Source: Himantopus leucocephalus | Lineage: Eukaryota; Chordata; Aves; Charadriiformes; Recurvirostridae | Assembly: GCA_003993805.1 (NCBI GenBank) | Contig: RSEF01000005.1 | Span: 44,170,907 to 44,234,906 of the forward strand | Length of the DNA: 64,000 nt | Reading direction: 5' to 3' | Shown here: positions 21,896 to 64,000 of the stretch, piece after piece | How positions within the stretch are numbered: the stretch's first letter is position 1 | Layout: the number at the start of each line of letters is the position of its first letter | The notes under the pieces: generated by a model | The model's database searches: none | Told to the model about the DNA's origin: nothing | The model's input: only the letters and a program-made list of their open reading frames with translations | Made by a program: the position numbers and the translations under genes

Positions 21896-22419
21896 CAGGC
21901 CACCATTTCTTGTTTGGTTTTGAGACATTCATTGTTGCGGCCATGCTGCAAATTTAGAACTGCAGATTCTGAAAGAACTGCTGATTCTTACAGTCCTGCA
22001 TCTTTCCTCAATTTTTAACTCAGCTTCATACTTGGCTTTCCATATTGGTACTCAATGCCTGAATGCACCCTTATTGGCAGCAGTTTTGTACGAAGGAATA
22101 TCAGCTCTATAGCTGTGGGCATCAAGTAGTTGTAGTTATAAATCTTAATAGAATACTTGATCTGGAACACCTTTTCTACCTTCTCTTGCCCATTGCAGCT
22201 GCTTGCTTCCATGGGTAGCAATCAATACTTGTCACCTTGGTGTCTATGTTCTTCACTATTGTGGCCCCATGCAGGGAGCAGCAGGTTTCACGAACATCCC
22301 TGCCTCAAAGATCCTGCTGCAATAAAGCTCAAGCCATGTGAGGGAACCACTGCTCCACTAACGACTCACATTATGACTCCAGTACATAACTTACGCTTCT
22401 TTTCCTGATACAAGTAGTC

Positions 22420-42339: not shown

Positions 42340-43250
42340 TGAAGTGCCTCTACACCAATGCACATAGCACAGGCAACAAACAGGAGGAGCTGGAAGCCAC
42401 CACGCTGCTAGAAAGCTACAACCTAATTGTCACTACTGAAACTTGGTGAGACAAATCCCATGACTGGAGTGTGGCTATCGATGGCTACAGGCTGTTCAGA
42501 AGGGACAAGAGAGGAAGAATGGGTGGAGGGGTTGCCCTCTACATCAAGTAATGGATAAAAGTGTGAAGAGCTGTCTCTGAAGAATAGCCATGAGCAGGTT
42601 GAAAGCTTATGGGTAAGAATTAGAGACAGAGGCAACAAAGGGAGCCTTGTGTTTGCTGTCTAGTACACCCAATTAAGGGAAGCCTATTGACGAAGCTGCC
42701 TTACTCCAGCTGCAGGAGGCATCGCGCTCACAGACTCTTGTCCTGCTGGGGGACTTCAACCACCCTGACACCTGCTGGAAAAGTAGCATGGCGAGCTGTA
42801 GGCAATCCAGGAAACTCCTGGAGGGCGTTCTTAAGCCAGGTAGTAGATAGCCCTACCAGAGGGGATGCGATACTGGACTTGTTGGTCACCAAGGCAAGTG
42901 AGCTAATCAGACATCAAGATTGGAGGCAGCCTGGGCCACAGCGATCGTGCACTGGTGGAGTTCGCAGTCCTGAGAGATATGGGTCAGGCAAAGAGGAAAG
43001 TCAGGACCCTGAATTTCAGGACAGCAAACGTCCAGCTCTTCAAGGAGTCAGTCAATAGGACCCCCTGGGAAACTGCCCTCAGGGACAAGGTAGCAGAACA
43101 GAGCTGGCAGATCTTTAAGGACACTTTCCTTAGAGCGCAAGAGCTCTTGATCCCCAGGTGTAAGAAATCAGGAAAGGAAGGCAAGGGACTGGCGTGGCTG
43201 AGTCAAGACTTGCTGGTCAAACCAAAGGGCAAGAAGGATATGCACAGGTA
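42340..43250 (+). pseudogene. CR1 ORF2 endonuclease remnant
   Basis: The frame covering 42360-42446 reads TGNKQEELEATTLLESYNL followed by IVTTETW, the conserved TETW region of the APE-type endonuclease. The next expected Trp codon is TGA (42447-42449). Downstream pieces in shifted frames include YRLFRRDKRGRMGGGVALY and LGDFNHPDTCW, the latter near the catalytic GDFN motif. At least three frame changes and several stops separate the pieces. Confidence 0.8.
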
Positions 43251-43430
43251 ATAAACGCAGGGACAGTTGTCCTGGGAATAGTATAGGGGTACTGCCCGGT
43301 GGTGTAGGGATGGGGTCAGGAACGCCAAAGCACAGCTGGAGATGAACTTGGCAAGGGACACAAAGAATAATAAGAAGGGCTTCTACAGGTATGTCAGCCA
43401 GAAAAGGGAGGTCAAAGAAAGCGTACCTCC

Positions 43431-44900
43431 TTGATGAACTTGACAGGCAAACTGCTAACAACAGACAAGGAGAAGGCTGAGGTACTCAGCATTTTTGCCT
43501 CAGTCTTCACTGGCAACCTCTCTCCCCACACAAGTGGATGGACCACAAGGCAGGGATTGGGGGAGCAAAGTCCCTCCCACTGTAAGAGAAGATCCCTTAG
43601 GAACCTGAATATACAGAAGTCCATGGGACCTGACAAGATGCATCCCAAAGTTCTGAGGGAATTGGCTGATGTAGTTGCCAAACCGCTCTCCATGATATGT
43701 GAAAAGTCATGGTAGTTAGGTGAAGTCCCTGGTGAGTGGAAAAAGAGAAACATTGCACCCATTTTTAAAAAGGGTAGGTAGAAAGGAGGACTCTGGCAAC
43801 TACTGACTTGGCAGTCTCACCTCTGTGCCCAGGAAGATCATGGAACAGATCCTCCTAGAAGCTATGCTAAGGCACATGGAGGACAGGGAGGTTGTTCGAG
43901 ACACCCAGCATGGCTTCACCAATGCGAAGTCCTGCCTGACCAACCTCGTGGCCTTTTATGATGGAGTGACTACATCAGTGGACAAGGGAAGAGCTACGGC
44001 TGTTGTCTATCTGGACCTCTCTAAGGCCTTTGACACGGTCCCCCACAACATCCTTCTCTCTAAATTAGAGAGATATGGATTTAATGGATGGACTATCCTG
44101 TGGATAAGGAATCGGCTGGGTGGTTGTGTCCAGAGGCTCAGTGGTAACGGCTCAATGTCCAGATGGAAATCAGTGATGAGTGGTGTCCCTAAGGGGTCTG
44201 TATTAGGACCAGCATTGTTTAATGTCTTCATTAACAACATAGCAAATTTGCAGATGACACCAAGGTGAGTGGTGCGGTTGACATGCCTGAGGGAGGAGAT
44301 GCCATTCAGAGGGACCTGGACAAGCTTGAGAAGTGGGCCCATGTGAACCTCATGAGGTTCAACAAGGTCAAGTGCAATGTCCTGCACCTGGGGCAGGGGA
44401 ACCCCTGGTATCAATGGAGGCTGGGGGATGACAGGATTGAGAGCAGTCCTGCTGAGAATGTCTTGGGGGTACTGGTGAATGAAAAACCAGACATGAGCCG
44501 AGAGTTTGTGCTCTCAGCCCAGAAGGCCAACTGTATCCTGGGCTGCATCAAAAGAAGTGCGGCCAGCAGGTTGAGGGAGGTGATTCTGCCCCTCTATTCT
44601 GCTGTTGTGAGACCCCATCTGGAATACTGCGTCCAGCTCTGGACAAGGAAAGACATGGATCTGTTGGAGCAGGTCTGAAGGAGGGCCACAAAAACGATCA
44701 GAGGGATGAAACACCTCTTGTATGAGGACAGGCTGAGAGAGTTGGTGGTGTTTAGCCTGGAGAAGAGAAGGCTCCGGGAAGAACTTATTGTGGCCTTTCA
44801 GTACTTAAAGGGGGCTTATAAGAAAAATGGGGACAGACTTGTTAGCAGGGCCTGTTGTGATAGGACAAGGAGTAACAGTTTTAAACTAAAGGAGGATTGA
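43431..44900 (+). pseudogene. CR1 ORF2 reverse transcriptase remnant
   Basis: Palm and fingers survive in three frames. At 43431-43715: [20 protein letters not shown]. At 43825-44268: [38 protein letters not shown] and [19 protein letters not shown]. After a deletion and frame shift, SKFADDTK with the catalytic FADD box sits at 44247-44258 and continues through the thumb to a stop at 44677. The last part reads LEKRRLREELIVAFQYLKGA. The deletion removes the residues normally between FIN(D)I and SKFADD, so the protein could not be made as one chain. Confidence 0.9.
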
Positions 44901-46098
44901 TTCAAACTAGATAAGGAAGGAATTTTTTACACTGAGGGTGGTGAAACACCGGCACAGGTTGCCCAGAGAGGTGGTAGATGCTCCATCCCTAGAAACATTC
45001 AAGGTCAGGTTGGACAGGGCTCTGAGCAACCTGATCTAGTCGAAGATGTTCCTGCTGATTGCAGGGGGATGGGACTGGACGACCTTTGAAGGTCCCTTCC
45101 AACCTAAACCATTCAATGATTCTATGATTCTATGACTACCCTCAAGTTCCTTCTCCACATTGTTACTACTGTTAAGATCATATAATTTATTTATAAGCAA
45201 TGTGATTAAAAAACGTGGACCAACAGATAAAATTATAGATTTTATCATAGATTGTGTATACTATATAGTTATATTACAATTATAGATTTATAACCACATC
45301 AATGGCCCTATGCTTCAGAAATCAGTTCTGTGAGACACAGGAAAGCTACATACCACTGTCAGGAATATAGAGCATAGAACAGCTCTAAGTTCAGATCACT
45401 CAGGTTCTCTGTTGCATTTCCCTGCCCTGATACTTTTGGACTAATCTAGCCTTCCTCCCACAGAGAACAGCAGTGCAAAACATGAAGAAAGAATTCTACA
45501 TCCCAGTGAAAGGCCAGAGGGTAGAAAAAGCGTACATAACAAATTAAATTGGAATTTGGCCAGAACTTCCAGGTTACATCATGGAAGCTGGCAAAAATTG
45601 TTGAGAAATCTATCAAGAAAAGTGATGGCCAAAATACTTATGAGGTTTTTTTTTTTAATAATCTCAGTTATGAGCTATTAGAATTGAATATGTTTTAGGC
45701 CAACCCACCCCTAAAACCCCAGAAAATGGGATTAGCAGTGGGCTAGCAGTAGCTGGAGCCAAAGATCACTTTTTTACATCCAGTGAAAAGACAGAATTAG
45801 ATAATGTCTATTACTAAATGTTCCTTTCAAACATCTTTTTTTATAATGCAAGAATGCATTCAAAATATCTTTCTGTAAAATATCTCCTCCGATAAAATAT
45901 AAAACATTCACATTAAAATTTGTCCTTGATGCTGTTTCTGCTGCATTAGTGACTACTCCTATTCATGTACTGCTCGTGTGTAGGAAAACTTGTCAGTTCA
46001 CGATTGCTGTTGACGTAGCTACAGGACACTGTCAAGTATCAGCTGCTTTTTCAACCTTACTGACCTTAGTTTGACAGGTAAAATTAGAACCAGCATAC

Positions 46099-46390: not shown

Positions 46391-46837
46391 TGTTTGCCGT
46401 AAAACAACTGCAGATCACAAAACTATGTAAAAGACACGCAAGACCTCTTAACTCCAAAAGGCAAGGGAATATGTAATTGAGGAGAACTGAATTAGTAAAA
46501 TAATTACAGGCTTCCAATGAGTGATTTCTCAGGATATAAAAAAACTGTAGTTTGGCCATCTCGTCGTGAGAAACCAGAATAAGAAAATTTCTTTATATGG
46601 AATGATGCAACACATATTATTTTATTTTTGGTTTTACTTTGTATTTTAAAATATAATGCAAGGTTTTGCTTTTCCATGAAATGCTTCCATAGAAATTTAG
46701 CTCTGTGGAACTTTCCAGCAACAATGATTTTTGTTCCATTAAAAACTGCAATGGCTCAATCTCTTTGCACGTTTAACTGCATCCCTTTCCACTGAACCCC
46801 AGTTGTGTCTTTTATTTAAGGAAATAAAAGAACTTAC

Positions 46838-46915
46838 CCTGGAATCCAGATGAAGCACACAGGGATAGACACCACTGCGTGGGTGGACATGGTGAACTCC
46901 GCCTCTGACTTGTGC
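46838..46915 (-). CDS. Internal exon, unknown protein
   Basis: 78 nt, bounded by a GTTATAG acceptor and a strong CCAGG|GTAAGT donor. After one base, 25 codons read HKSEAEFTMSTHAVVSIPV, then CFIWIP, ending with two bases of a Gly codon. Other frames have stops. It starts in phase 2, matching the exon at 52438-52634 (CT plus G gives Leu). It contains an ATG in good context (ACCATGT), so it could also serve as an internal start, but the frame is open through the whole exon. A beta-strand-like hydrophobic stretch (AVVSIPVCFIWIP) dominates. Confidence 0.75.
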
Positions 46916-48371
46916 CTATAACGCAGTCATATGTGTCTAAGGTAGCTGTCTGGTTTCCCTTTTTCCTAAGCAGAGAGCTAGTCAATATAGTTAGAGAAGT
47001 TTGCAGCGATTCATGTGATCAAACCCTGGGTGTTTACTTTGGAGCGACATGAATGATGCCACAGATCCCAGGTTCTCTGTTGACTACAAAGGCAGGTTCA
47101 TTTAGAGTGAGGCACGTGTTCTGTCCAAACCCAAGTTCAGTCAAACGAACCTCATTCACACTCTGTAAGAGGTTAGAGGCACAACAGCCTTGTTCCATTC
47201 AAGGACACCTCTGGAAACACGCAGTGGTTCATGGCCAATGCAAAGACCCACCCCTGTTGTAACACTAAAACATGTTGCCAGATTTATTTTTTGGTCTGTA
47301 ATGGTAAACAAATCTTTTACCTAAATAAGTCTTTCAAACATATACTTTTGAAGAAAACTACTGATTCTCAATGCAAAACTACCGTCTTAGTTTTAAAACA
47401 AATTTTACAGTAGAAGAAAGAAAACAAAGAAAAAATGTGAGAGCATATTGTTCTTAGAGGCAAGTTAAAAAGCAAAATCCGACAACATAAATCCACATTG
47501 CACATCTATATTTCACACAAAACAAAGATCAATTACATAAAACAGGTCTTTACAAAAGTTTGGCAGTGTTAGGCAAATAAATAGAGATGCTATGCACTGC
47601 TTGGAAAAATAATTTATTTTGTTAGCTTACAAAAATGACAACGTTTCATGTTAAACTTTAAATTACGAGTACAGCTAGCAACTTTGATCCTGCAAAGGTA
47701 CTAACTATCTCCTGAGATGCAGTAAACACTTGCGACCTTGCTTTCAGGAATAGCTTGGAGCAAGTCCCAAGTCAGCAAAAAGTAATGAAGTTTGTTATTT
47801 TTGTTACTGCCTCATTGGCTAACATTTTATATTCTGATTGCAGAAAGTAGGTACAAATGTTGACATTAAATTAACATATGAACTTTCCAGGTAGAGCCTT
47901 AACCAAACTTAAACATACCTGCAGACTCTGTGTCAAGCTATCAGTTTGCAGCAACATGCTTACAGCACAATAGACAGCTTTCATACACTTTGCACTGTCA
48001 TCGCTTGACATGATCTCAGCGCTTTGTATTCTGATTGGTACTCATGTTTTATACTTGAGTTTTGATTCTGGCTTCATATTGGTATAAATCAGGCATAGGC
48101 ATTCTGAAGTCAACGCGGCCACACAACAATAAAACTGCCGTGCTGGTGTGACACGTGAGTCAGACCTCGTGTGTGTAACTGAGTACCACAAACTTCACAG
48201 GTTGATGAGGACCTGTGCTTCAGAGTAACACGGCAACAAGCTTCTCCTTATGTACTTCTACAATGCTTTGTACCTAAACCTTCAAGAGGTGTTCTGAAAA
48301 TGCAAATTGTAGGTTTAGTTTTATGTGCATCCATGCAATTCACAGAAAGTAATAGTAAAGCAGTACTTTGA

Positions 48372-48426
48372 TTGGACTTGATGATCTTAAGGGTCTTTTC
48401 CAACATAAATGATTCTATGATTCTAT
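48372..48426 (+). mobile_element. Short CR1 3' tail
   Basis: 'TTGGACTTGATGATCTTAAG', 'TCTTTTCCAACATAAATGA' and two partial ATTCTATG octamers. About 55 bp, the extreme 3' end of a CR1 insertion. Confidence 0.85.
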
Positions 48427-51400
48427 TTTTTTTTAAAATTCATTACATAATTCTCAAGAGAGCTAAGTTGGTTTCCCCTTCCCAAAGATGCCAGATAATG
48501 GAAAAACTGGAATGCAAACACCTTGGGAAGCTATCTTGGAACAAAAATATTATAGGACAAAAAAAAATTGTTAGAGAATTTCTAACAAATGGTCAAAACT
48601 GGTTTTATTTTGTGAGCCTGTTGTTCAGTAAGAAAAAAAGTCTATCAATAGTGTTGGTATTTATATCTAAGGTATAATTCTGCCTACAAATACGAAAATT
48701 CCCAGTTTAGTTACTTAATGAACGACTAGATTTTGTTGAAAACTGATGTGAAACAGAACATTTAGAAGTGAGTGTGAAATACAGTGGATTAATCCTAACA
48801 TATGAACTCTCTCTCCTTTGAGAAGGTTTCATTCTTTTGAAAAAGCCGTAGTAATCCACATTAGAGTGGAACAAAGAGCTGTAATATTTCCAAATTTTGC
48901 AAATTTCATAAGCTTGTATTGAAGCCATTTAGGAGCACAGCAGTTTTCATTATATAATTAAATTTGTTTTAGTCTTCTTGAAAAATAAAAGTACTTATAC
49001 AAGAGCCCAAATAAACTCAAAATCCCATTTCTCAGATTTTGAAAAAATATCTAAAATAGAAAAATGAGACAGTGCCAAATTATTCCAAATGTTTACAGTT
49101 TGCTACGAAATTATTTTTATAAGTTCATGGATTTTTCAGGAAGTATTTGTTGCTCACTAGACCAGCACATATTGTAGACATGCAGACTTCCAAAATGCAA
49201 TGAAGAAGCAGGTTGAGAAAATATTTCTCCCCCCTTTTCTCAAACTCAGAACGAAATCGTAACTCCACTGATATTAGAGACAAGGCCTCTGCTAGCTTTA
49301 GCGTAGTCAGGATTTCTAAGCACAAAAGATTAATTTTCTTTTTGACCAGTAAAGTTTTACAGTGTATGAACATGTTTATGCAGGTCTACGTCTATAAGAA
49401 AGACATGTAATTATGTGAACAGGACTATACATGACGTCTACACACCTATTAAAAGTCTGAACACACCTTTACATTTCAGAAATCAAGTTTGAAGGAAACG
49501 ACAATCGTTCTGGTTACTACAGCCATGTCGGCTTCAACGCGCTGCCTTCTCCAGTGCATTTTACAGGAATGAAAAGTAGCAGCATGTTTATACGTACACA
49601 CAGGATCAAACTCATGAGAAAGGATAAAGAAGATGAAAATTTAACAAAGAAAAGAGAGATACACATTTTTTTCCACACAGATGTCCCTAATACCCTGCTG
49701 AGAGTTGAGCTTACACGACAACATGGTCAGGGAGCCTTTTATATTAAAGCTAGAGCTGGACTCCTTGCTTAACTACTGGCAAAGGTCTTTCAAAGACTTT
49801 ATGCCAGGAAATGATACACCTATCATCTCCATTACATTAACAGGTACAACAAGGTTTAGAAGTATTGAACAGACCTTTCTGACTTCACACCAGTACAGAG
49901 ACATCCTGCATCCATGGAATTTGTTGAAATTCTGCAGATTTCTTCAAGGTCACTTTACAGTGTACTGCAGTGGCAATAGTCGACCGGGAAATGTGATGTA
50001 ATGTGTCCAGCGTCACATGTACAAGACGCCTGGGCAATCTTAGTTTTAGAGTTTCCCAACCTAAATGCTAGATCACAAGACTAATATTGTTCCAGTTTTA
50101 GAATACTAAATGTAAAAAACACTGTGTGTTATTCAAATTAAATGAAAACAAAAGATCTGGAGGCAAATGACTCATGCATCAACTAACTTAATTAGGAGTG
50201 TGTGTAATGAGGTATTAGAATTAGCTGCTTTTTTAGTTATCCCCAAATTAAATGGAAACTGGCAGCATAAAATGACAAAACGTTCCAGAACTCAAAAGTG
50301 ACTAACATATTTTTTTCTCACACTGTCCAAGGACAGAAAACACAAAAAAAATCATCATTTGCTATTAAGCACATGTAGAAATTTCTAACTTCAAAAGTGA
50401 TCCATCTTCAAAAGCACAGTAATACACTGAATGGACACTCTTACCTACAGTCTAAATGTTTATCTATTTGTCACTTTCTTCTGATAATGTAATATTGAGG
50501 CTGAAATTTGAACATCTGATCTACTTGTTAAAATACAATGACCAGCCAGCACTCCATACGTAGCACATCAGTTATTGCCGATGGAATTATTTCAAGTCTG
50601 AGATTCAGTGCACATAAGAGAATTTCCCAAAGTACGGGCATGATTAAGTCTAAATCAAAGTGAGCAAGTCTCTCACAATAAGAGAGGACATGAAGTGGGA
50701 TTGATGTCTCTTGATTAATATATTCAAGGGCTTCAAAGATAGTCTATAGAAGGCTGTCACTCTAGTGAAGTTTAAGAAATTACTCGCATTCTGGAAAAAT
50801 GAAGTGTTTCATGACTTTGATACTTGATTTTTCCGTTTTCACCGAGATATTTTTTTTTTATCTACCAAATATGAATAATTTGTCCCACTTACTTTAAACT
50901 TTGTTGATTAGTCTTTTGTTAATTTATAGACCTCTAATCAATCAACGGACAACATGCTAACAGATTCACATTGCATGGCTGGTGAGTCTCACCGTTGATG
51001 TAGCTTACACTGACTAAGGTTTCTGCACTTTCTAGCTTTATGACTGCACTGGAGACCCCTCCAGTGGTTTCTCCATGGTTTCTGATGGACTTATTGACAT
51101 TCCGTTAGTCAAAACATCTAACAAAAATTCTGCCAGCTATATAGTGGTTGCAGCTGTTTGGATGAGATTGCGTTGTCAGTGCTGCACCCAGCAGTGAAAG
51201 CCTCATTAAAAATGGTGCACTCATTGAGCTCCGTACACAAAATAGCTTATGCCACAGATGCAAACTATTCTTTTGGCCAGCAGTAAAATGCTGCTCATCT
51301 TCATCATTTTCCACACCAAGTACAAAATGGGGTCACTGGTGGTTTCTGTCAAGAGCCTAATGCCAGAACATAAATTAGGCTGGCTTCATAGTTCAATGCT

Positions 51401-51450
51401 TCTTTAACAATGAGTGACACAGAAATCCACATTTGCAGAATGATACTGTG

Positions 51451-51506
51451 TGATCGGTTGGAATTGATGATCTTAAAGTTCTTCTCCAACCTAAATGATT
51501 CTATGA
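51451..51506 (+). mobile_element. Short CR1 3' tail
   Basis: 'TTGGAATTGATGATCTTAAA', 'TTCTCCAACCTAAATGA' and one ATTCTATG octamer. Same type of insertion as at 48.4 kb, independently truncated. Confidence 0.85.
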
Positions 51507-52437
51507 CCATCTTTAGCAAATTTCAGTGTTGCTTCTCAGAGATATTTTAGATGTCATCAACTGTTTCTACTGAGGGCAATTTGATATTGACACACTGAAG
51601 AAACATACTTTGTGATATGAGTCTTTTTTAAGTTCTGGACTAAGCACTTAGGCAGATCTCCCAAATTAGTTGTAGCCTCTTCTTCTGCCTGGAACCAATA
51701 ATATTTCAGCATTATTGGAGCAAAGTCTACCCTTTACAATTTTCCTCTGCAAACTGATAGTAGAATGAATGGTAGCATTTAGAAAAACCTAGAAAAATGT
51801 AGTAAGACATATTTACTTTTCCCTGTGGGATAATCTTTAAAATTAGGCAGCTTGTGATCTGATGTTAGTCAGTTTACCAAGTAGGTTTTATTTCAGTGAA
51901 CAAATAAGAGTGGCAGAATTCATATGAAAAGAGATTATGTTATAAGAAACAACCACCTTCAAAATTAATGTCATTCCCTGGACATATCAACTACCAAAAT
52001 TATTGACATGGGATAAGTGAAGAAATTATGGTATGCCTTCCGACATACTAATGCACTGTAGATGGCAGATGAGAAAAGCAGTCTAAAATCAAAACAACTC
52101 TGGTCTGAAGACAGATGAAAATAACAGACTACTCAGGAACAATTGCTGTACTTATTCAAACAAAATACCTATTGAGGAGCCATATCCCTAAATAAAGAGA
52201 GCAGAATTATCCTAAAAGAGATATCTTTATGCAGTTCTTCTATTTAAATGTAATACTTTAATGAAAACCTGTTTACAATTGGGTTCCAAAAATATTTAGT
52301 TCCAAATAGCACCAAGTAGGTACCTAAATAAAACGACTAGAAATTTTAAAATATCATCACTGCATATTTTCTCAAGGCTCACGATAGTATAGATTTTGCC
52401 ACTATTAAGGCAAGAGAAAACAAAATCTCATTCTTAC

Positions 52438-52634
52438 AGCCCGAGAAATGGCAGATGTGCAACTTCAGTTTTAGAAACTTGAGACCTATTGTTGTTAGCA
52501 CAAATGATAAATGCTGGATGTTGCTGTATTTTAACCACAGCAATCTCTTTCATTTTTGTTGTCAACATTCCCAGTAGCATTACTTTACAGATTTTTGAAA
52601 GACTGAGGTTATCAGAGTCTGCTCTGCTGTACTT
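52438..52634 (-). CDS. Internal exon, unknown helical protein region
   Basis: The longest convincing exon: 65 codons plus two bases, ending at a GGGCT|GTAAGA donor. It opens KYSRADSDNLSLSKICKVML, continues LGMLTTKMKEIAVVKIQQHP and AFIICANNNRSQVSKTEVAH, and ends LPFLG. The acceptor is either the AG of ATACAG (exon from 52634) or the CGTTTTAG 12 nt upstream (exon from 52646, adding CCIQ). Both are phase 0, matching the exon at 53310-53432. It has no ATG-initiated ORF of note at its left. Regular hydrophobic spacing suggests helical repeats. No family assigned. Confidence 0.75.
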
Positions 52635-52646
52635 CTGTATACAGCA

Positions 52647-53309
52647 CTAAAACGTTCTTCAGATTTAAAAATCTAATTTAGTTCTTTACATAGAAAAGCA
52701 AAACACTTCATACTCACAACGGCCTAGACATGCTTACAGTAAAGAGTTGAGATGAGTTGTGCTAGAGTAGAAAGTATTTTAGTATGTAAAAAAAATAAAT
52801 ATCCAAGATGGAATCTTACTTAGGGCTCACTTTTATTTAGAGGTAAATACTAGCTCTAAAGCAGTTTTTAAATTAAGACACCAAGAATAAAAGTGCTCTA
52901 AAATTTTAATCATGAGCTGCTTTCCATTCTTTCTACTACTGGTTTTCCTCTACATCTGCTTCTAAATTCTACAATTAGATCAAAAACACAAGAATTTGTG
53001 TGATGTCCTCCTAAACATCCATTTTTGACAAGGCTGCATCCCTAGATATTGACCTGCAGCTCACATTAACTTCAGTGTCAATTACTTCTGGGAGGTGAAG
53101 ACAGGGCTTAGAGAGAGATAAATATATTACCAACACACTTTGAACACAAAGAGTTTAACACAGCCATCATAAAATTTGACTGTAACAAGCAGTTCCACAT
53201 AAATTCATGAATAAATTCTTCTGTGTGTTGTAGATATGAGAACATACTCAGGTTTCATATTACTAATTTTTAGCCATAAAAATGGTATCAGTGTTACAAA
53301 AATACCTAC
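52647..53309. other. Intron
   Basis: AT-rich, nothing recognised. Confidence 0.5.
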
Positions 53310-53432
53310 TTGTTTACTTTCAGGGTAACAGTGGCATTTTCGTTCATGAAAAATCCATTCAGTGCTCCATTCAGTGCTCCACAGTGCAGAGACTATGCCT
53401 TCTAAGCCAGAGATCAACTGATATGCAGATTC
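53310..53432 (-). CDS. Internal exon with in-frame micro-duplication
   Basis: 123 nt, 41 codons, phase 0 at both ends. Acceptor GAGCTAAG, donor CAA|GTAGGT. Reads ESAYQLISGLEGIVSALW, then STEW twice, then IFHERKCHCYPESKQ. The repeated STEW comes from an exact 12-bp tandem duplication (53355-53366 and 53367-53378 on the plus strand). Helical beginning, then Cys/His-rich end (CHC). Joins in phase to exons on both sides. Confidence 0.75.
53355..53378. repeat. 12-bp tandem duplication inside an exon
   Basis: Two perfect copies of CCATTCAGTGCT on the plus strand. Adds four residues (S-T-E-W) without a frameshift. Confidence 0.9.
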
Positions 53433-54720
53433 CTTAGCTCAAAAGTGGATTTTAGGATAGTATTTTCTTTGTTCTAAGGAATTTTAACATATCTTCTTTA
53501 TTTACTTTGGTGGGATAGCTAGTAAAAATGTGGCTGTGGTTTGAATATCCAAGGAGTACTTTCACCATCACTGAAGACTGGCTTCCATCAAAAATTTGAG
53601 AACAAAATGTCAGAAAATTGCTTTGTTTTACACCGTAACATTTTATTTTTTATCCTGGACTAAGTTTTATTTTTATTTTGATGTTTCTTCTTAGGCTGAC
53701 ATAATTACATCATAAAAATAAATTATTTTGAATACTTAGTAAATACCATCTCAAAAGTAATTAAAAATAAGTACTCTTAAGTCTGCTCTAAAACATTAAG
53801 GAACTGAAGGGCATAAAATTTAAAGGTTATTCAAGGGCCAATTATTTAATGCTGAAATAAAGGGCCAGTGCATTTCTGAAAGCACAATATTGAACCACTG
53901 TATTTCAGGACAGCATTTAAAAACCACAGATGCCTAATATTAGCTCGTTAAATCTGTATGTACTTACTACCTTCATACAAAGTTGCCCGATTTACCAAAT
54001 GCTGAACAGAACAAAGAAACAAACTACCATTTTTAGGTGTGATACCACGTTTTTTGATTATTGAAAACTACTGCTTTGGACAAGAATCGAGGAACAGGTT
54101 ATTAAATGGTTAAAGTATTAAAAAAAAAATCTGTCAGAAGAGACAGCAATTTTTAAAGTCTGAAATATACAAATTGTTTTATTAAAAATTTATCTGTTTT
54201 TCTACTTTAAAAACTGAAACTGGTCAGAGGACTATTATTTTAGGCCAATATGGAAAAAATATTATTTTTTAAACCACAAAGGGACAGTTTCACATAATGT
54301 CATGAACGGAACTTTAGCCTTTAGTAAAAAGGAAACAAAATTCACTTTGTAATATGAACCTCTATCAAAGGTGGAAGAGAGACAAATATTACATGCTATC
54401 TGGACTGCCATGCCAAGAGGGTAAATTTAAGAAAGAATTTCCTGGCTTTGGAGTCTGTAAGCCTACTCATTAAAAATTCCTCCTTTTTTTTTGTGGTTTG
54501 ACTTCTTCCCTTCTGTTCCCCCAGCCCTTTTAGAAATTTTTGAAAAAGGATATAAAACTGCTGAAAACCCAGTCACACGGCCAAAGGCAAATATTCTAAG
54601 CACTGAGCATATTTAAAGTCTTAAATCCAAAATTATTCACCTAGTAGACATTTCTGTCCTGCATAGTACAAAAATCGATTCAATACTTGATGTAATAATG
54701 AGGGAGTTCAGACTGCTTAC
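53433..54720. other. Intron
   Basis: AT-rich with several A and T runs. No repeat family or gene recognised. Confidence 0.5.
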
Positions 54721-54783
54721 CCTTAGTTTTCTAACACTACAAAGCAGTAGTGATACAGCTTTAAGGAAAAATACTTCAGATTT
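54721..54783 (-). CDS. Internal exon, unknown helical region
   Basis: 63 nt, 21 codons, phase 0 at both ends. Strong acceptor (long T/C tract, CTTGTAACTCAG) and donor AAGG|GTAAGC. Reads KSEVFFLKAVSLLLCSVRKL plus R. One other frame has a stop near the end and the third stops at once. A hydrophobic helix with a basic C-terminal end. Connects in phase to the next exon at 53432. Confidence 0.72.
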
Positions 54784-55202
54784 CTGAGTTACAAGTGAGG
54801 AAAAAATGTATAAATACATAAAATGGTAAGAGCAATCAATATCTGGATTTTTACAAATTTCTTAGGAAAAAGAGAGCACATTATTCTTCTGTGTATTACT
54901 TCTCAGCTGAGACTCTTAAAGCCCCATTCATTTACCAACAGGCGCTTTACCTCAAAAATCATTTCAACTTCAGTAAAGTGGGTTGGGCATACATTTATCC
55001 ATCAGCAATCCATGCAGCAGACCTCATTACAAAATGAGGTGTTTTGAGAGCATGATTTACTGTTTTATAATATATTTTAAAATGACCTTTCTATATTTTC
55101 AGCCATAATTTGTAGGTACCATAAAGTCTGCAAGCTGGTGACATTTTATTTTGCAATTTTTTAATGTTTCACCAGACAAACCAGCTAAAATATTTTAAAC
55201 AC
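54784..55202. other. Intron or 3' UTR of the short isoform
   Basis: If the exon at 55394-55495 is terminal, this stretch and the bases up to 55393 hold its 3' UTR. An AATAAA lies on the minus strand at 55145-55150, about 245 nt after the stop. Confidence 0.35.
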
Positions 55203-55225
55203 CATATTTCCAGCTGTGCTCTGAT
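55203..55225 (-). CDS. Candidate 23-nt micro-exon
   Basis: A strong T-rich acceptor (TTTATTTTTTTAATTAG) is followed by 23 nt reading, after two bases, QSTAGNM, then a weak ATG|GTGTTT donor. Its phases (1 to 0) are exactly what is needed to connect an internal splice in the 55.4-kb exon (ACA|GTAAGG) to the exon at 54721-54783. Small size and weak donor make it tentative. Without it, the 56.8-kb exon can join the 54.7-kb exon directly. Confidence 0.3.
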
Positions 55226-55393
55226 CTAATTAAAAAAATAAATTACAAATGTTGGAGACACTTAAAGTAAGTTTAGTTTATGGGAACTGTGGCTTGAGCT
55301 AAACACTGCTTCATGACATCCACACTCTTCGTAGGCCATGACACAAACAGGTTTCTATTTGTCCTGCCTTCTCCAGAGTAGAAGTTTATTTGC

Positions 55394-55495
55394 TTATGTT
55401 TTTGTCTTGGCCTTGTCCTTACTGTTGAGATCAGAAGAGATGGATGTGCCTGTTTTGCTTTCTTGACCTTCTGAATGAGCAGATGTGCCAGAAAT
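55394..55495 (-). CDS. Alternative terminal (or internal) Ser/Lys-rich exon
   Basis: Acceptor GGCTTTTTGCAG, then phase-0 codons ISGTSAHSEGQESKTGTS and ISSDLNSKDKAKTKT to TAA at 55396-55394. Phase 0 matches the exon ending at 56811. Low hydrophobicity and Ser/Thr/Lys/Glu richness continue the style of the three exons upstream. Within it lies a usable donor, AACA|GTAAGG, which would make it internal and leave phase 1. The sequence therefore supports a short isoform ending here, a long isoform that splices inside or skips it, or both. A 78-codon ORF in another frame covers the same bases but does not fit phase. Confidence 0.6.
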   Translation of the reverse strand: MSGTSAHSEGQESKTGTSISSDLNSKDKAKTKT

Positions 55496-56810
55496 CTGCA
55501 AAAAGCCAAATGCCAGCACTACAATGCGCAGCATTATACACATACAAAATGTAAAGAAAACAGTTTTAACCAAATTAGATTTTTTTCTTTAATGGAATTT
55601 AAGCGTATAGAAAATGAAAGGAAAATGAATTCAATTTTTTTCCTCATTTCCTTGTCCAATTTTGATGTTGTCAGCAAGAAGTTCTGTTTGAAACGGGCTG
55701 AATACAAGGGGATTGTCAAGTACGTGCACTGTTCAGAGAACCCACTAGGACTGCAGAACACTTCTTCAGAAAATTAAAAAAAGAAAAAAGAAAAAAGAAA
55801 AGCTCCTATTTTCAGGTGGCACATAGTGACCTGAGAATTATGCCTGAGACACCTACAGTGCTAAGACAGTGTTTCAGAGAAGAAGTAGGCTTCCTAAATA
55901 GGAAAGGAGCCTACAAAACAAAATTATTTCAATGGTGTCCACATTGCTACAGTACTCTGATAGATTTGGCAATTTTTTTTAAGGCACATTAGTAGTGATT
56001 CAACCAGAAGCACTAGAGAGGAGAATAAAACAAGGACCATCAGAAACATTTGCATTTCTTTTGACTGCAGATAATTCTGCTGTGATGTGCTGTTTTGTAT
56101 CTGATTTGTTTAGAATAGAGACATCTGAACAAATACAACTGTGCAATATTGTATTTTCATAACATTTTAAAGTCAATATGACACAGGTCTTCTAATAGAG
56201 GAAAAAAACAGAATAAATAAATGATCATTAACCCCCTATTAAAATTTTCACAACCACACAGCAGTGCCCTTCAACATGCTTAATACAGATGGGTGAGATC
56301 CAGGTGCCGTTAAGTGCCTTACCAGAGGTCATCTGATAAAACCGTTCTGGTCAGAAGAATTATTCTAAACATCTTGCCACAAATATATGCTGAACCTGAA
56401 ATCATGATACGAATTTCCACTAATTTTGAGGAAATTTGGTTTTGTTTAATATTTACCACTTCTTTCCTAAATGATTGTTGCAAACTGAAGAACTTAAATC
56501 ACAAATGTGTCTGCACAACACTGTATAATGACTCTCATAATATTAAGACAAAGGTAATTTCTAAATATTTTTTTCATCATTAATGATGTTATTAAATGTT
56601 ATAAAAAACCCCAAATGTCAGAACAATTCCCATACAGGCGTAAATAAGCTCATAGCAAAGATCAATGTCGCAGGTCTTTCAGAATATTTCAGGAATACAA
56701 TAAATTTAGTTTAGGAGGACTGCAAAAACAAATACAAGAGAATAGCATAATCCCAAAAAACCTTTGGTGTACAAATTACATAAATTGTCACAAGAGTTCA
56801 TTAGACTCAC
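55496..56810. other. Intron
   Basis: Contains an (AAAAAAG)n stretch at 55776-55801 and otherwise AT-rich sequence with no gene or repeat recognised. Confidence 0.5.
55776..55801. repeat. (AAAAAAG)n simple repeat
   Basis: Three to four A-rich heptamers ending in G. Confidence 0.85.
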
Positions 56811-56871
56811 TCTTGGTGCTCCTTCATTTAAGTGTTTGGCAATAGCTGAATCATTACGGGGTGCATCACTC
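56811..56871 (-). CDS. Internal exon, polar linker region
   Basis: 61 nt. Acceptor CTGCTATAG, donor AGA|GTGAGT (strong). After one base, 20 codons read SDAPRNDSAIAKHLNEGAPR. It starts in phase 2, joining the exon at 56965-57067 (CA plus G gives Gln), and ends in phase 0. Charged and polar, probably a flexible linker. Confidence 0.7.
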
Positions 56872-56964
56872 CTATAGCAGATGGAATTACTACTGTTCAA
56901 AACCAAAAGAGTGGAATGGAATTTACCACAGAGAAAGCTGGTGTGTTTTTGTAAAATGTTCTAC
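56872..56964. other. Short intron
   Basis: 93 bp between two phase-compatible exons. It begins with a weak GTAGAA donor. If it were retained, the upstream exon would run into TAG after GKQ. Confidence 0.45.
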
Positions 56965-57067
56965 TGCTTCCCTCTTTCTGCTTGCAGCTTCATATCACTG
57001 ACAGCAACATTAATGGAATCTTCCTTGGTGGCACTTGTATCAAAAGGAATCATTCTTTTCCTGAGTG
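56965..57067 (-). CDS. Internal exon, acidic/polar region
   Basis: 103 nt. Acceptor CGTTTCTAG, then two bases completing a Ser codon, then 33 codons: LRKRMIPFDTSATKEDSINV and AVSDMKLQAERGK. It closes with CA at a weak GTAGAA donor, and the split codon (CA|G) becomes Gln with the next exon. Reading on gives a TAG immediately. Joins the exon at 61685-61793 in phase 1. Confidence 0.62.
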
Positions 57068-57270
57068 CTAGAAACGAGTCAGACAAAAAAAGTAATTAAA
57101 CATCTTCAGAGAAACACATACATTTTGCTGATTGACCATCAATGTTTATATGAAACATATATTTTGTATACAACATTGTAATTTACCCAGCAAGTAATAT
57201 GGTATTAATAAATATTCAACATTCATAATGCTATGAATTAAGAAACTGACTCATTTTTCTAGAGAAAAGA

Positions 57271-57325
57271 TTTTCAGAAGGAGAATGAAATCTTCTTCAT
57301 TTTCAGAAGAAGAATGAAATCACTG
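57271..57325. repeat. 29-bp tandem duplication
   Basis: Two copies beginning TTTTCAGAAG and sharing GAATGAAATC, starting at 57271 and 57300, with a few differences. Confidence 0.8.
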
Positions 57326-60180
57326 TGTTTGGTACATTAGTATAACACTGAGTTATCATTTTTCAGCATAAAGTTTTCGGTATTGGTCCAAAACTATGCT
57401 ACTGTATGCTATTTCAACGGTACCTCCTGTGGTCAGTATTCAAAGTAAAGTGAAAAATCATAAAGGAAATTAATTGCTAAACTAAATCAATTTGCATTTT
57501 TCAAAGTGATGATGTCAAGCTTCCAATCATTCCAGGTTCTTATCCTTGAGCAGCCTTAGAAGGTTTTGTTCTGGAATGGGGTCCCAGAGCATCATGATGT
57601 TACAATGTCTTTTTACTTTCAATTAAGTTACTTATTTATAAAGGTCAATACAGATAGTCTTAAGAGCTTATGAAGAAGTATACATAGAAGGATAAAGACA
57701 GACATTGGCCTACATTGCAGGAGTTAATTGTTACGACAATAAAATCAACATTCAGGACAACTTGTTTTTCATCAACCATGATATCATTCCTACTATATAC
57801 CATGTTGACACAAGAGTGTTGTGTATCACCAGAGCCAAGTGGTCAGAGAAGACTGTGATCCCAACTACAGAAGCTGGGAAAACTGGTGGCTATTTTCTTC
57901 TCCATAAAGTCACAGCTTAGGAAGCCCTGGAACATAAATTCCCAACAACAATAGAAAGCCTGAAAGCCACATGGCTTCTGGGAAACCATCCAGGTTAAAA
58001 CCTTGAAGTGATGAACTGTACAAAGAAAAAGGCAGGACTCAATTCACAAAGCTAATGCAAAGCATGTGTAACTCTAGGGATCTTTGTAATACTAAATTTA
58101 TGAAAAATACAGTGGCCATGAAAAACAATTTCTGAGGATTATTCTTTAGATAACAACTAGTAGTGATTTTTTAGACCAACCATTTTGGTCTGATAATAAA
58201 CCAGATGGCAAACCATATCTAATGAATACTTCCTTGTATAAATTATTTTCTCAGTTAAACTTCTTCCTTTCTAAGAAAATGGGTATAGAAATAAAAGCTC
58301 ATTCCCACAGCATCTTTAAAATAGTTTGTTATGGAAAAGCTGTTATAATTGTAGAAATTATACCAGAAACATGAAGACTAGACATAAACAGAATGTCAGT
58401 GTTAATTACTTTTCCCTTAAACTGCCTGCTGCATTGGCAACTTTTTTGCTAAATATATATATATGGAAGCAGATTGTTGTTCCCTTATTCATCTTTTCAT
58501 ACTTTTTGTCCCTCTTTCTTTAACCAATTTTAAACTTAAATCCCAGGATCCCTCTCATAGATAAATTAAATTACATCAAATGTGTCTGCTCTTCGCGCTG
58601 GTGCTCTCCACAAGTCATAAGAGACCCACATAGGGAAGGGAACTTGTAGTACTACTTATTGACTCTATAATTAACTCCATAAGTTTCATGAATTTAAAAG
58701 AGATGGAGTGGGGAAACATTAAATCACAAAGGTTTGCGAACTGCTCCAAAGAGTAAACAAAAAAAAAGGTCCATTCTTCTGTTTCTGTAGAATTAAGGAG
58801 ATAAATTAATCAGAGAAAATAGGTCATGACATTTATAGGTAGATTTATTAAAAGCTACAGGAGGTTCGGGAGCAAAAGACTTCAAATTATACTTTGCTGT
58901 TAAAGTCTCAAATTATAACTAATTAATATCATTACTGAAATTAAAAGTTCATGGCATTTATGTGACTAACATGACTGAAGTAGCTGATTTTATCATTTGC
59001 CACTCACTGGCAATTACAAGAAAAGCTCCTAAACGTTAATACCGCTGCAGAATTTTCACTGTCCTCAAGAACTATAGCAACAACTTCAAAATACCCATTT
59101 AACTGGTGGAGATCAGGTTCAGCATAAAGGTAAAACATTCAGTCACTAACCAAAGTCTATGGAGTAATTCACATACCTTAGTGCCATAAGCTACCACAGA
59201 CATCCACAAAGGGCTGTGAAAGATGTGATGGGACCGATGGGAAACCTATGCCTTCCTGGAATCACAGCTAGAAGCATACTCTAGGACATCTAAAATGACA
59301 TCAGGCATCTTCAATGGGCACCTGACTTGCTGTCATACTTACTTACTACACATAAAGAACATATAATAGCACTAACTCTTAGGAGAAAAGAATCAGAAAG
59401 TGAGAAATTAAGAGCACCACCTTTATTCTATCAGAGATAAATCAAATCAGAGATAGGAAAAATATTTTTTGCCTACTTCCCTGGTTTAGCTTCAGAAAAT
59501 TTGACTAATGGATTTTTATAGAGTACAAGTAAGAAACTAAAACTCTAAACATTTTTGTATCCAGTTTTTTTCCCTTAAAAACAAATAGGAAAAAGTGAAA
59601 CACATTCACCATTTTCTTACTTTTTTTCTTTTTTTAAAAAAATTATTATTTTTAAAAATAGCTCTTCACCATCTGGGCATAAGAACAAAACTGAAAACAC
59701 TCTCAGCACCATTCTGGGATTTGGAAAATATGAAATATGATGATCAGCTTAATTTATGATGTGGAAAATACCTTCCTAAAAGTTTTAAGCAAGAAAAAAA
59801 AAGTCCCTCAGCCATGCCTGAACATAGTTTCAAAAGAAGCCTTCCTCAAATGCTGAAGACTTTGCAAATATTTCATAATGACCAACACTGAATCACTACA
59901 GTCTTTCATTCATCACTTGTTTTTTTTACCCCCCGAAAGCTTAGTGCTGGTAAAAATCAGTTGAATCAGAGAATAAATACCCAGAACTGGTTCATCATAT
60001 AGGTATTCAGATCACATGGATCCTATTTCTCTGACAACTGCCTAAAATAGATTAAAAAATACTAAAGTAACAAAGTCCTAGCAAGTTTCATTCAGGTTAA
60101 GCAATATAAAGATACTGTAATATTTTAGGAATGTTTATGCTGCAACTTTGAATTTCAGCAAGTTTTTGCAGTGGAATTAC

Positions 60181-60236
60181 ATAGTTGTTGAGGTTGGAAT
60201 GGACCACTGAAGGTCATCTAGTCCAACATGCCTGCA
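60181..60236 (-). mobile_element. Short old CR1 3' tail
   Basis: 'AGTTGTTGAGGTTGGAATGG' and 'GAAGGTCATCTAGTCCAAC' are the reverse complement of a CR1 3' region. Truncated and more diverged than the next copy. Confidence 0.65.
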
Positions 60237-60370
60237 AGATATGGGTTATTTCTTTTCTATACCCCAACCAGGCTGAGCTGAACTTTGACTTGCAAGACGT
60301 TGACAGGGATGAGGTCAGGGATAATGGAAAACCAACTCTGAGTCAGGGAAAACTGTTCCTGACATACAAA

Positions 60371-60724
60371 TCATAGAATGGTTTAGGTTGGAAGGGACCT
60401 TGAAGATCAGCTAGTTCCAACCCCCCTGTCATAGGCAGGGACACCTCCCACTAGACCAGGTTGCTCAAAGTCCCATCCAGCCTGGCCTTGAACACTTTCA
60501 GGGATGGAGCTTCCACAACTTCTCTGGGCAGCCTTACCACTCTCAAAGTGAAAAATTTCTTCCTAATATCTAATCTAAATCTACCTGCTTCCACTTTGAA
60601 GCCATTCCCCTTCATCCTATCACTACATGCCCTTGCAAAAAGTCCCTCCCCAGCTTTCCTGTAGGGCCCCTTTAGGTACTGGAAGACTGCTATAAGGTCT
60701 CCCCGGAGCCTTCTCTTCTCCAGG
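60371..60724 (-). mobile_element. CR1 LINE 3' fragment, ~355 bp
   Basis: Plus strand starts 'TCATAGAATGGTTTAGG', the reverse complement of the CR1 end. The minus strand encodes the end of ORF2, reading LEKRRLRGDLIAVFQYLKG, GLFARACSDRMKGNGFK, RFRLDIRKKFFTLRVVRLPR and APSLKVFKARLDGTLSNLV. The usual residues between VVR and LPREVV are missing, so a small in-frame deletion is present. A younger-looking copy than the 20-38 kb fragments. No function expected. Confidence 0.92.
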
Positions 60725-61684
60725 TGATGAGATGGAGGCATTTGCTCTTATCCTTTATTCCCACTATTGTTATTCAGTATGCTCTACAAAAAGATAGTCA
60801 TCACAACCTGAAGATTCTGAAAGGAAAAGAAACCAATTATCTTTAACCTCATCAGATCAACTGAGGGCTTACTGGTGAGCACTTCCCTACTGCAGCACTC
60901 ATTCGAAGATGCAAAGGTTTGAAAGTGCAATGAAGCCTGAAATAGGACTGTCCATTATGCAGAATGCAATTTACTGAATAGGTTCCCAGTACACAAACTG
61001 GCTACATTGAAAAGAAATGGAAGATGGCATCCTTCTGAAGAAAAGTATTCTGATATCCATGTGCTGATATGCTCAAAAACTACCATAAACCCCTTTTTTT
61101 TTTTAAGTTAGACACTCGTGCAAAGGTGTGCCTGTACCAGATAAAGATCTAATATATGCTATCTTTTACTGAGCAGTTCCTAGCTGTATCAGAGATTCTT
61201 GCAAGACCACAAGTGGTATACACACAAAGGGATAGAAAGAATAGTTAAAAACTATCGAAGTAGAAGCAGAATTAGTGAATTCAACTTTCACTGTTAAACT
61301 GCTACACAAGCACGAGACTAGCTGGTGCAAATGAAACATCTGGGAAAGAATCCTTGACTAAGATGCCTCTCTGGTCCCTGAAAAGATACACAGCTTACAC
61401 AGATATGATTCTTCATGCAGAGATGCAGAATCCAAGTGCAGCCCTTTTTTTGGCATAGGTTTGGATGGCAAACAGAATATATTGTATGTCCCAGTTAAAA
61501 AACCCCAAACAACTATCAGTGGGATGTAATGAAGTACTTCCTAGACAAAGGCATCCATCCTATATCTAAAGCTAAACCACAGCATTTTTTTGTCAAAAAG
61601 TAGTGTCTTACTCTCTCAAGTGAAACAGCTTTAAAAGAGGACAATACATTACTTGTAGATTTTTTTCTGTGAAACAATACTTAC

Positions 61685-61793
61685 AACCTGAATCTGAGAG
61701 CAGTGAGCTGGACAAAAAGCTGTTTTGAGTTTGCCAACTAGAAGAGGGAGGAGCCACTTCTATATCAGAAATTTCAGCATCCAGTTTCACATC
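61685..61793 (-). CDS. Internal exon, Ser-rich acidic region
   Basis: 109 nt. Acceptor TTTGGCTGCCATAG, strong donor GGTT|GTAAGT. Phase-0 start, 36 codons: DVKLDAEISDIEVAPPSSS, then WQTQNSFLSSSLLSDSG and one base. The start matches the exon at 62610-62679 and the one-base remainder matches the CA at the start of the 57.0-kb exon (T+CA gives Ser). Serine-rich with acidic DxE/SD clusters, typical of a disordered, phosphorylatable region. No family recognised. Confidence 0.75.
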
Positions 61794-62609
61794 CTATGGC
61801 AGCCAAATAAAAATAATTTTTATCTGTTAATATCAAGCAGCTGTAAACTTTAACAAAAAACACACAGTAGCACACATAGAGGTAGATGCTGTGATTTCAC
61901 CCATGCTGGAAAATACTGATTTAAATTCTCAGAATTCTCAGTATTGCAGTTAGGTTCAAATTCATTTGCTTGTGAATTTCATGCCCATTTCACTACCACA
62001 AAGTCTCTGCAAAAAACTGCTTTGCCTTGAAAAAAGCATTGGGACCACTGCAAGTTCTTGTCACTGCAGTAAGTTGTAAAAATGCTCTCTTTTCTGTTTA
62101 CTTCACATCCACAGTTCAGGACAAAGCATAGCAGCAGGGCACACATCAGTGAATGATGAATTCCTCATCAATGAATGGTCCACATTAATTCACTGAAGTT
62201 CCAGAAGTAGTAATAAAAATTAAATCCTTTTTCCCTGCCACCAAGGAAATTCAAACTTCATTGATTACTCAGATCAAAATACTTTAACTTGCTTTTCCAT
62301 TTTTTTATTAAATTATTAAATAAAGTCTGAAACACAATGTTACGATTTATGGCTAGACCCATACAGCATAGCTTTTTGGAGAGTAAAGTCATTTGGTTTA
62401 TAAGCTAAAAAAAGATCATTTTAAAAAGGCCATTTAAACAAAAATCTCCGTAAATCTTTATTAGCACTGCAGCAAGTAGTCCCCAGTTGCAATACCTTCC
62501 AAAATAAGATTAAAAGCTTGGCTTGGTATCCAAATTACTCAGCTTCTTGAAATGAGAAGAGATAATAATGCACAAATGCATCAGTTCATAAAACACTCAA
62601 TTTTGCTAC
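61794..62609. other. Intron
   Basis: AT-rich; nothing recognised. Confidence 0.5.
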
Positions 62610-62679
62610 TGAATTCTTATCATAAACAGCCTCAGGGAATTTTGTTAAAACATCTTGCAATTTGTCATTCATGCTGATA
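62610..62679 (-). CDS. Internal exon, helical region
   Basis: 70 nt. Acceptor TTTTGTTTTCAAATCTTAG, then one base and 23 codons: ISMNDKLQDVLTKFPEAVYD then KNS. The donor is a weak TCA|GTAGCA. Without splicing the frame reads VAKLSVL and stops. Start phase fits the exon at 62993 (CT plus T gives Leu) and end phase 0 fits the exon at 61793. Confidence 0.55.
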
Positions 62680-62992
62680 CTAAGATTTGAAAACAAAATA
62701 AAATTCAGCATTAATTTAGTGATACAATGAGCTTTTGTCCCATCACCGAAGAGGGATTTACTCCTATTAAGACTAATGGAATTATACATATTAATCCCCT
62801 TATGTGCTGATGTGACTTAATACCTAAAGTGTACATAGCCCAGTAACAACTTCTAAAGAATAAAAAAAGGTATTGTCTTTTCATTCTGCCTCTAGAAATG
62901 CTATCTCAGAACAGAGCTTTTAAACAAGCAAGGTACTTCTACCAGCACCTGCAATACAAAATGGCTTTCTCTTTACAGAAATTTTAACTTAC
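62680..62992. other. Short intron
   Basis: 313 bp, AT-rich. Nothing else recognised. Confidence 0.5.
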
Positions 62993-63059
62993 AGCATGTG
63001 CCTTTTCTCATGTGCTTCTTTTACAACTACATCTGTGTTTGGCTGTATGCTGTGTTTGA
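62993..63059 (-). CDS. Internal exon, helical region
   Basis: 67 nt if the acceptor is CCATGTAG. After two bases it reads KHSIQPNTDVVVKEAHEKRH, then M and two bases before a strong GCT|GTAAGT donor. An alternative acceptor (CATACAG) would start it in phase 0 at CCA and drop the KHSIQ part, which would match the candidate exon at 63698-63819. The 3' boundary and phase are firm, the 5' boundary is not. Confidence 0.6.
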
Positions 63060-63697
63060 CTACATGGTCAGTTGCTCATGGCAGGCAAACTGTCCTAAAA
63101 TATTTGCATCTATCCATCATAACTTTTATCTTTAGTTTTCCTCCAGCTTTCTCTTTTGATTTTGCTTCAGTTGGTATTCTCTATTATTTATTTTATTTTT
63201 ATACATTATATTTACCTTCTTTTTCCCCAATTTCTTCTTCATCTACTATCACTCAGCCCTTTCTTAGTTGAAAAATCATGATTGTTGTACTTGATGGTAT
63301 TCTGCCAGCCTCTGGCCTCCGTTATTACTGGGAATCTTACATTTTAACGTGTACAAATAGCAATTACGATTTTCCTGGGCTTCTAAGCAACAGGTACTTT
63401 ACAGCCATCGCAAAAGACTACAGAGGTGTAGGAAGATTGAGTGGGGACAAATGAAATCATAAGAAAGGAAGAAAAATAACTGCTTTTAGGGGAACATTCA
63501 ACTTCGGTTTCATTTTTGCTCCTTCAAATGAAAAGAGGCTGGGAAGAAGCTGAAAGAAGTGTATTACAAGAAAGGCTAGAAAGAAGAGCGCAACAGAGGA
63601 GAAAGATTAATTCCGTAAGTAATTTTATCTAAAATGGTCACTGTAAAAATTTTACAAGAGCTCTCTTTTTTAAAACACGCATTTTCTTATCACCTAC
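63060..63697. other. Intron
   Basis: Contains a purine-rich plus-strand open stretch near 63519-63605 ending at a GTAAGT. I judge it incidental. Confidence 0.4.
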
Positions 63698-63819
63698 CAA
63701 ATATCTGTCTTTGTATAGCAGAAGCACTGTGTTGTGTACAGAGCATGAATCAAAACTATCAGAAAGAATGAACTTCGATGTCCTCAAGCCTACACTCTTC
63801 CACCAATCAATTTGAGAGA
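63698..63819 (-). CDS. Candidate exon, unknown protein
   Basis: 122 nt between an AATTGGGAG acceptor (after a T-rich tract) and a good TTG|GTAGGT donor. After two bases, 40 codons read SQIDWWKSVGLRTSKFILSD, then SFDSCSVHNTVLLLYKDRYL. Protein-like, with a beta-rich look. It ends in phase 0, which fits the next exon only with that exon's alternative acceptor. Confidence 0.4.
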
Positions 63820-64000
63820 CTCCCAATTGGCAATAGTAAAATAAAAAAGTTAAACAACAATGCATTTGAGTTAGTTCCAAGGGAGAGTAAGAAAGGCAAG
63901 CACTAAAAAGAGTTTTTTTAGACTAAGCTAGCCTGATCACTGAAATCAGATTAGCACCCGTCTGTTACTTGTTTTTGAACATTCTGTTCTATTTGTAACA
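63820..64000. other. Intron at the right edge
   Basis: Nothing recognised. The upstream exons and promoter of the gene would lie beyond the window. Confidence 0.35.

What the first reader, a model, noticed from the sequence alone, without database searches (positions are those of the whole stretch)
46838..63059. A phase-coherent chain of small exons reveals a hidden minus-strand gene
Ten open stretches of 61-197 nt, each flanked by splice-site-like AG and GT, join in a consistent reading phase at nine successive junctions (62993 to 46838, taking the exon-skipping path or the micro-exon path at 55.2-55.5 kb). Random open frames would agree about one time in three per junction. None of these exons shows up as a convincing ATG-to-stop ORF. 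I do not recognise the assembled protein, which goes from an acidic Ser-rich region to a helical region to a beta-rich region.
Basis: partly seen in the sequence, partly recalled or inferred. Interest (0 to 1): 0.8.

Follow-up and report, generated by a model that had tools for sequence, protein, structure and literature searches.

The report
Tail end of bird CEP128 gene
There really is a minus-strand gene here, but it is the last two coding exons of a well-known bird centrosome gene, CEP128; the long ten-exon chain proposed for it is the kind of pattern that chance gives in any sequence like this.

Summary
Two stretches are genuine exons: 61793-61685 (109 nt) and 57067-56961 (107 nt, ending in TAG). 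Joined, they give 71 residues matching the C-terminus of avian CEP128 (centrosomal protein of 128 kDa); closest is Pluvialis apricaria, 65 of 71 identical. The next CEP128 exon upstream was not found in the window. Phase coherence carries no weight: the 16.3 kb region holds about 8e22 phase-consistent ten-exon chains on the minus strand, 6e21 on the plus strand and about 1e21 in shuffles; under mild splice thresholds the minus strand has a moderate excess. Best reading: the 3' end of an ordinary, known gene. No RNA data were available.

The parts
61685..61793 (-). CEP128 penultimate coding exon, 109 nt, entered in phase 0 and leaving one base (acceptor ...ctgccatag|GATGTG, donor CAGGTT|gtaagt)
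   Evidence: tblastn of bird CEP128 proteins, 80-93% identity; one open frame only; the join to the next exon reproduces DSGSLRKRM as in orthologues
56961..57067 (-). CEP128 last coding exon, 107 nt including the TAG stop (56963-56961); acceptor ...ctcgtttctag|CACTCAGG
   Evidence: 61 of 61 long bird CEP128 sequences carry it as their C-terminus; 6 of 29 short ones carry it, the others being mostly partial records that stop at or near the end of the preceding exon
55130..56960 (-). probable CEP128 3' untranslated region (inferred); poly(A) hexamers ATTAAA 56450, 55593, 55165 and AATAAA 55390, 55150; true end not known
   Evidence: hexamer scan; no protein support for the open stretch 55495-55394 inside it
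57068..61684 (-). CEP128 intron between the two exons (4617 nt), holding a repeat at 60567-60724
   Evidence: exon boundaries; inverted repeat pair with 44756-44913
61794..64000 (-). probably part of the preceding CEP128 intron (inferred); the exon encoding ...LEDSKQRVQQFK was not found here
   Evidence: no tblastn match of 61 long CEP128 sequences at E<0.01 except one run-on from the exon; upstream 60 residues score 31 here against mean 28.7, sd 3.8, maximum 39 in 55 tiles elsewhere

Best explanation
The window holds the 3' end of the avian CEP128 gene on the minus strand. The penultimate coding exon is 61793-61685 and the last coding exon is 57067-56961. They join as T|CA across an intron of about 4.6 kb to give ...SDSG-SLRKRM...AERGKQ-stop, followed by a 3' UTR, probably to the poly(A) signals near 55.15 kb. 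[quoted passage not shown] these exons encode its Ser-rich C-terminal tail, whose own role I did not find described in the passages I saw. The other proposed exons are chance open AG...GT stretches in intron, UTR and intergenic DNA. Shown: homology, in-frame join, stop. Inferred: splicing, UTR extent, function in this bird.
For: A search with three joined candidate stretches hits bird CEP128 proteins, E down to 3.7e-23; of 29 hits, 24 are named CEP128 or CE128 in some form, 1 'hypothetical protein', 4 have no name. tblastn puts the strong matches on these two exons. A second search gave 61 of 65 candidates at E<=1, all annotated as a bird CEP128 (one, P0047, as 'centrosomal protein of isoform B'); all 61 end in the second exon's sequence. 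In one search every HSP at E<0.01 falls on these two exons. The join is in frame, 65 of 71 residues identical to Pluvialis. The 61 were selected by words from the first exon, so the second exon's presence in all of them is independent of the selection. In chicken CEP128 lies with DIO2 within 500 kb of TSHR (PMC4460094, one passage seen).
Against: No RNA evidence was available. Splice scores of the two exons are only moderate in my rough matrices, and a rough exon ranking put 61793-61685 only 18th of 30 listed minus-strand stretches. Pfam finds no domain in the two joined exons, and the PF28367 label shown with the hits was not reproduced by my scan. Only 6 of 29 short proteins carry the second exon. 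Only two exons are in the window, so telling the gene from a partial copy rests on 71 residues.
Confidence: 0.97

Rival explanations
1. One reading: one unrecognised minus-strand gene with ten exons from 63059 to 46838.
For: Two stretches in the region are truly coding and conserved. With mild splice thresholds the minus strand has more ten-exon chains than the plus strand or shuffles (3.1e6 against 2.2e4 and about 1e3).
Against: All 61 long orthologues stop where the codon at 56963-56961 stops. The first exon (part 63042-62993), the 55495 stretch and the 46915-46838 stretch match 0 of 61 and 0 of 29 proteins above shuffled controls. The 55495 stretch scored none of 102 candidates at E<=1 among proteins of about 550-1750 aa. 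The first exon leaves 2 bases and 61793 is entered with 0. No Pfam domain at E<=1 on the minus strand 44.2-64 kb, which is weak evidence, since the true exons were missed too.
Confidence: 0.01
2. CEP128 has an alternative last exon here (55495-55394, ISGTSAH...KAKTKT-stop) used in some transcripts.
For: Acceptor score 3.8, a stop codon and poly(A) hexamers follow; it joins in phase if a donor after 57003 is used.
Against: That donor scores poorly (-1.5); joined straight to 61685 it must be read in another frame; 0 of 61 long and 0 of 29 short proteins carry it; no hit. Isoforms hidden inside 90% clusters were not seen.
Confidence: 0.02
3. A partial CEP128 duplicate or a separate short 'CEP128-like' gene rather than the CEP128 gene itself.
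For: Some bird records are models of 140-148 aa called CEP128-like (P0001, P0002, P0004, P0005).
Against: Long CEP128 sequences of many birds end in the same two exons, so the short models are most simply split pieces. No frameshift or premature stop in either exon here. The host genome could not be searched.
Confidence: 0.03

Closest known systems
CEP128 (centrosomal protein of 128 kDa) of birds, e.g. Pluvialis apricaria P0031 (1099 aa)
   Same: 65 of 71 C-terminal residues identical, aligned over all 71, same end of the protein
   Different: Only the last two coding exons are in the window; P0031 residues 1-1028 have no match in it at E<0.01
Short predicted CEP128-like proteins of Egretta, Empidonax, Melopsittacus and Haliaeetus (140-148 aa)
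   Same: Both terminal exons are present
   Different: Their first 69-77 residues come from upstream of the window; probably split models of CEP128 (inference)

Membership tests
CEP128 | C-terminal sequence conserved with long CEP128 sequences of other birds | tested here: met
   61 of 61 match both exons above shuffled controls (the first exon by construction of the search, the second independently); identity 73-92% over 56-71 aligned residues
CEP128 | Intact reading frame across the junction and a stop at the orthologous place | tested here: met
   The join translates to 71 residues plus stop
CEP128 | Upstream body of the protein in continuity | not testable with these tools
   Not found in the window; own-genome search not answered
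CEP128 | Synteny with TSHR and DIO2 | tested here: inconclusive
   No deiodinase domain listed in the Pfam scans of nearly all the minus strand (a gap of about 200 nt at 44.0-44.2 kb and single bases left out) and of the plus strand to 44 kb; plus strand 44-64 kb not scanned; the TSHR side would lie outside the window
CEP128 | Localisation to subdistal appendages | not testable with these tools
   Described for other species in PMC8061701 and PMC7173962 (passages seen)
New ten-exon gene | All ten stretches conserved as protein in other birds | tested here: not met
   Three stretches that could be located at least in part match 0 of 90 CEP128 proteins above shuffled controls, one of them also none in a wider search; the other intervals were not given

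The most novel reading that the evidence does not exclude
A rare bird CEP128 transcript uses an alternative terminal exon downstream of 56961 (best candidate 55495-55394), giving a different C-terminal tail.
Probability: 0.02. Interest if true: 0.2.

Novelty: already known. Interest (0 to 1): 0.08.

Why it matters
It identifies the hidden gene as CEP128 and gives the coordinates of its last coding exons. It also shows that reading-phase agreement among freely chosen open AG...GT stretches is no evidence for a gene, while protein homology of single small exons is.

Tried and rejected
Pfam scans with stops read as X gave nothing for this locus; elsewhere only hits below the family cut-offs, to an endonuclease domain and to ribosomal protein L27e. 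The same reading of the minus strand 54-64 kb against solved structures gave nothing at E<=1. Pluvialis CEP128 (P0031) has no relative in the PDB by sequence at E<=0.001. Rough splice-site and codon-usage scoring did not single out the gene: 61793-61685 ranked 18th of 30 listed minus-strand stretches, and 57067 was not listed (as a terminal exon it has no donor to score). I first joined 61793-61685, 57067-57003 and 55495-55394 as a candidate tail; the first two led to CEP128, while the third was my error: the exon at 57067 runs on to its own stop, and 55495-55394 found no support. In tblastn with the 29 short hits, matches elsewhere in the window have E 0.012 or worse. Rfam at gathering threshold and tRNA scans were empty. 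A first script failed on N in the window and was mended. Controls are limited: 20 shuffles per threshold, with those above 2500 candidates skipped uncounted; 200 shuffles per stretch against one protein, P0031. Of 90 proteins 61 exceed 600 aa (called long here; 744-1124 aa, isoforms included).

Full report
The finding proposes an unknown minus-strand gene made of ten small exons between 63059 and 46838, on the strength of phase agreement at nine junctions. I tested the statistical argument and the biology separately.

Phase agreement. I listed every open stretch of 61-197 nt between AG and GT in window 46801-63100. On the minus strand there are 2594 distinct intervals (2903 counting frames), covering 80% of the region; on the plus strand 2079, covering 79%. 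In a sample of 300 minus-strand stretches the median number of phase-compatible successors within 2 kb is 96, and 2.3% have none; on the plus strand 80 and 5.0%. Dynamic programming (introns of 80 nt or more) counts about 7.7e22 phase-coherent ten-exon chains on the minus strand and 6.1e21 on the plus strand, with mean log10 21.1 in dinucleotide shuffles; 20 shuffles were made and any with more than 2500 candidates skipped, their number not printed. With mild splice thresholds the figures are 3.1e6, 2.2e4 and mean log10 3.1: the minus strand is richer, but long coherent chains occur in all three (longest 17, 15, and 9-21 in shuffles). With the two stricter thresholds no ten-exon chain remains on either strand: longest 7 and 3 on the minus strand, 8 and 3 on the plus strand. 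The one-in-three argument fails because boundaries are chosen freely.

Homology. I joined three plausible stretches by phase (61793-61685, 57067-57003, 55495-55394) and searched about 5.8 billion proteins. Of 30 candidates 29 scored E<=1, the best at 3.7e-23: 24 carry a CEP128 or CE128 name, one (P0017) is called hypothetical, four have no name. tblastn of the 29 against the window put the strong matches on 61793-61685 and on the exon ending at 56964 just before the TAG; matches elsewhere have E 0.012 or worse. None reaches 55495-55394. A second search, using the first 40 residues from 61793 with candidate lengths set by a reading of about 1100 residues, returned 61 of 65 candidates at E<=1, all annotated as a bird CEP128 in some form, from 36 named species with several isoforms each for some. 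They run from emu and kiwi to manakins and a flycatcher. All 61 end in the second exon's sequence. The closest is Pluvialis apricaria, 65 of 71 residues identical; identity ranges from 73% to 92% over 56 to 71 aligned residues. Since the 61 were picked by words from the first exon, its presence in them is by construction; the presence of the second exon in 61 of 61 is an independent test. Among the 29 short proteins, 28 carry the first exon and 6 the second; most others are partial records that end at or near the first exon's end.

Gene structure. Exon 61793-61685 is open in one frame only, is entered in phase 0 and leaves one base; exon 57067-56961 completes the codon as T|CA and ends in TAG. 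The join gives ...LLSDSG-SLRKRMIPFD..., as in orthologues. The preceding 60 residues of CEP128 do not score above background in 61794-64000 (31 against a mean of 28.7, sd 3.8, maximum 39 in 55 tiles), so that exon probably lies beyond the window. After the stop there are poly(A) hexamers at 56450, 55593, 55390, 55165 and 55150; I infer a 3' UTR of up to about 1.8 kb.

None exceeds its shuffles in any of 61 long or 29 short proteins. The first exon leaves two bases, whereas 61793 is entered with none. A search with the 55495 stretch scored none of 102 candidates at E<=1. Minus-strand Pfam scans of 44.2-64 kb are empty, but they missed the true exons as well. Other intervals of the chain are not named in the finding and were not scored one by one. 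Against my reading: there is no RNA evidence, the splice scores of the two exons are only moderate, Pfam gives no domain for them, and the host genome could not be searched.

Function, from the literature. [quoted passage not shown] its loss impairs TGF-beta/BMP signalling and displaces centriolin, ninein and CEP170, while cilia structure is not overtly disrupted (PMC8061701, two passages seen). It is described as working in a complex with ODF2, and its loss leaves a void of microtubules at the appendage region (PMC7173962, passages seen). Cep128 knock-out male mice are infertile (PMC8927350, abstract and outline seen). In chicken CEP128 and DIO2 lie within a 500 kb region around TSHR (PMC4460094, one passage seen). 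I saw nothing on the role of the C-terminal tail in those passages; I made no search for it beyond one term query in PMC7173962.

Verdict. The locus is the 3' end of a known gene.

Noticed in passing
window 21957-22238, minus strand: Decayed copy of ribosomal protein eL27 (RPL27) in one continuous stretch: the three frames match parts of eL27 weakly (best E 0.002, 0.0008 and 0.022), Pfam L27e E 0.0035, below its cut-off. It looks like a processed pseudogene (inference); such copies are scarce in birds (recalled).
   Followed up: partly
window 42716-44579, plus strand: LINE remnant with endonuclease-like and reverse-transcriptase-like reading frames (weak Pfam hit; open stretches; the name CR1 and the reverse-transcriptase label are recalled).
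   Followed up: partly
window 48372-48420, 51458-51506 and 60567-60724: Repeats within the region of the proposed chain; they look like CR1 3' ends (recalled).
   Followed up: no
proteins P0001, P0002, P0004, P0005: Four bird records carry 140-148 aa 'CEP128-like' models that are probably split pieces of CEP128 (inference).
   Followed up: no
window 61585-61684, minus strand: Unnamed short predicted proteins P0006 and P0016 run on past the donor of exon 61793-61685 into the intron; P0016 matches the window at 86% over 61784-61611.
   Followed up: no
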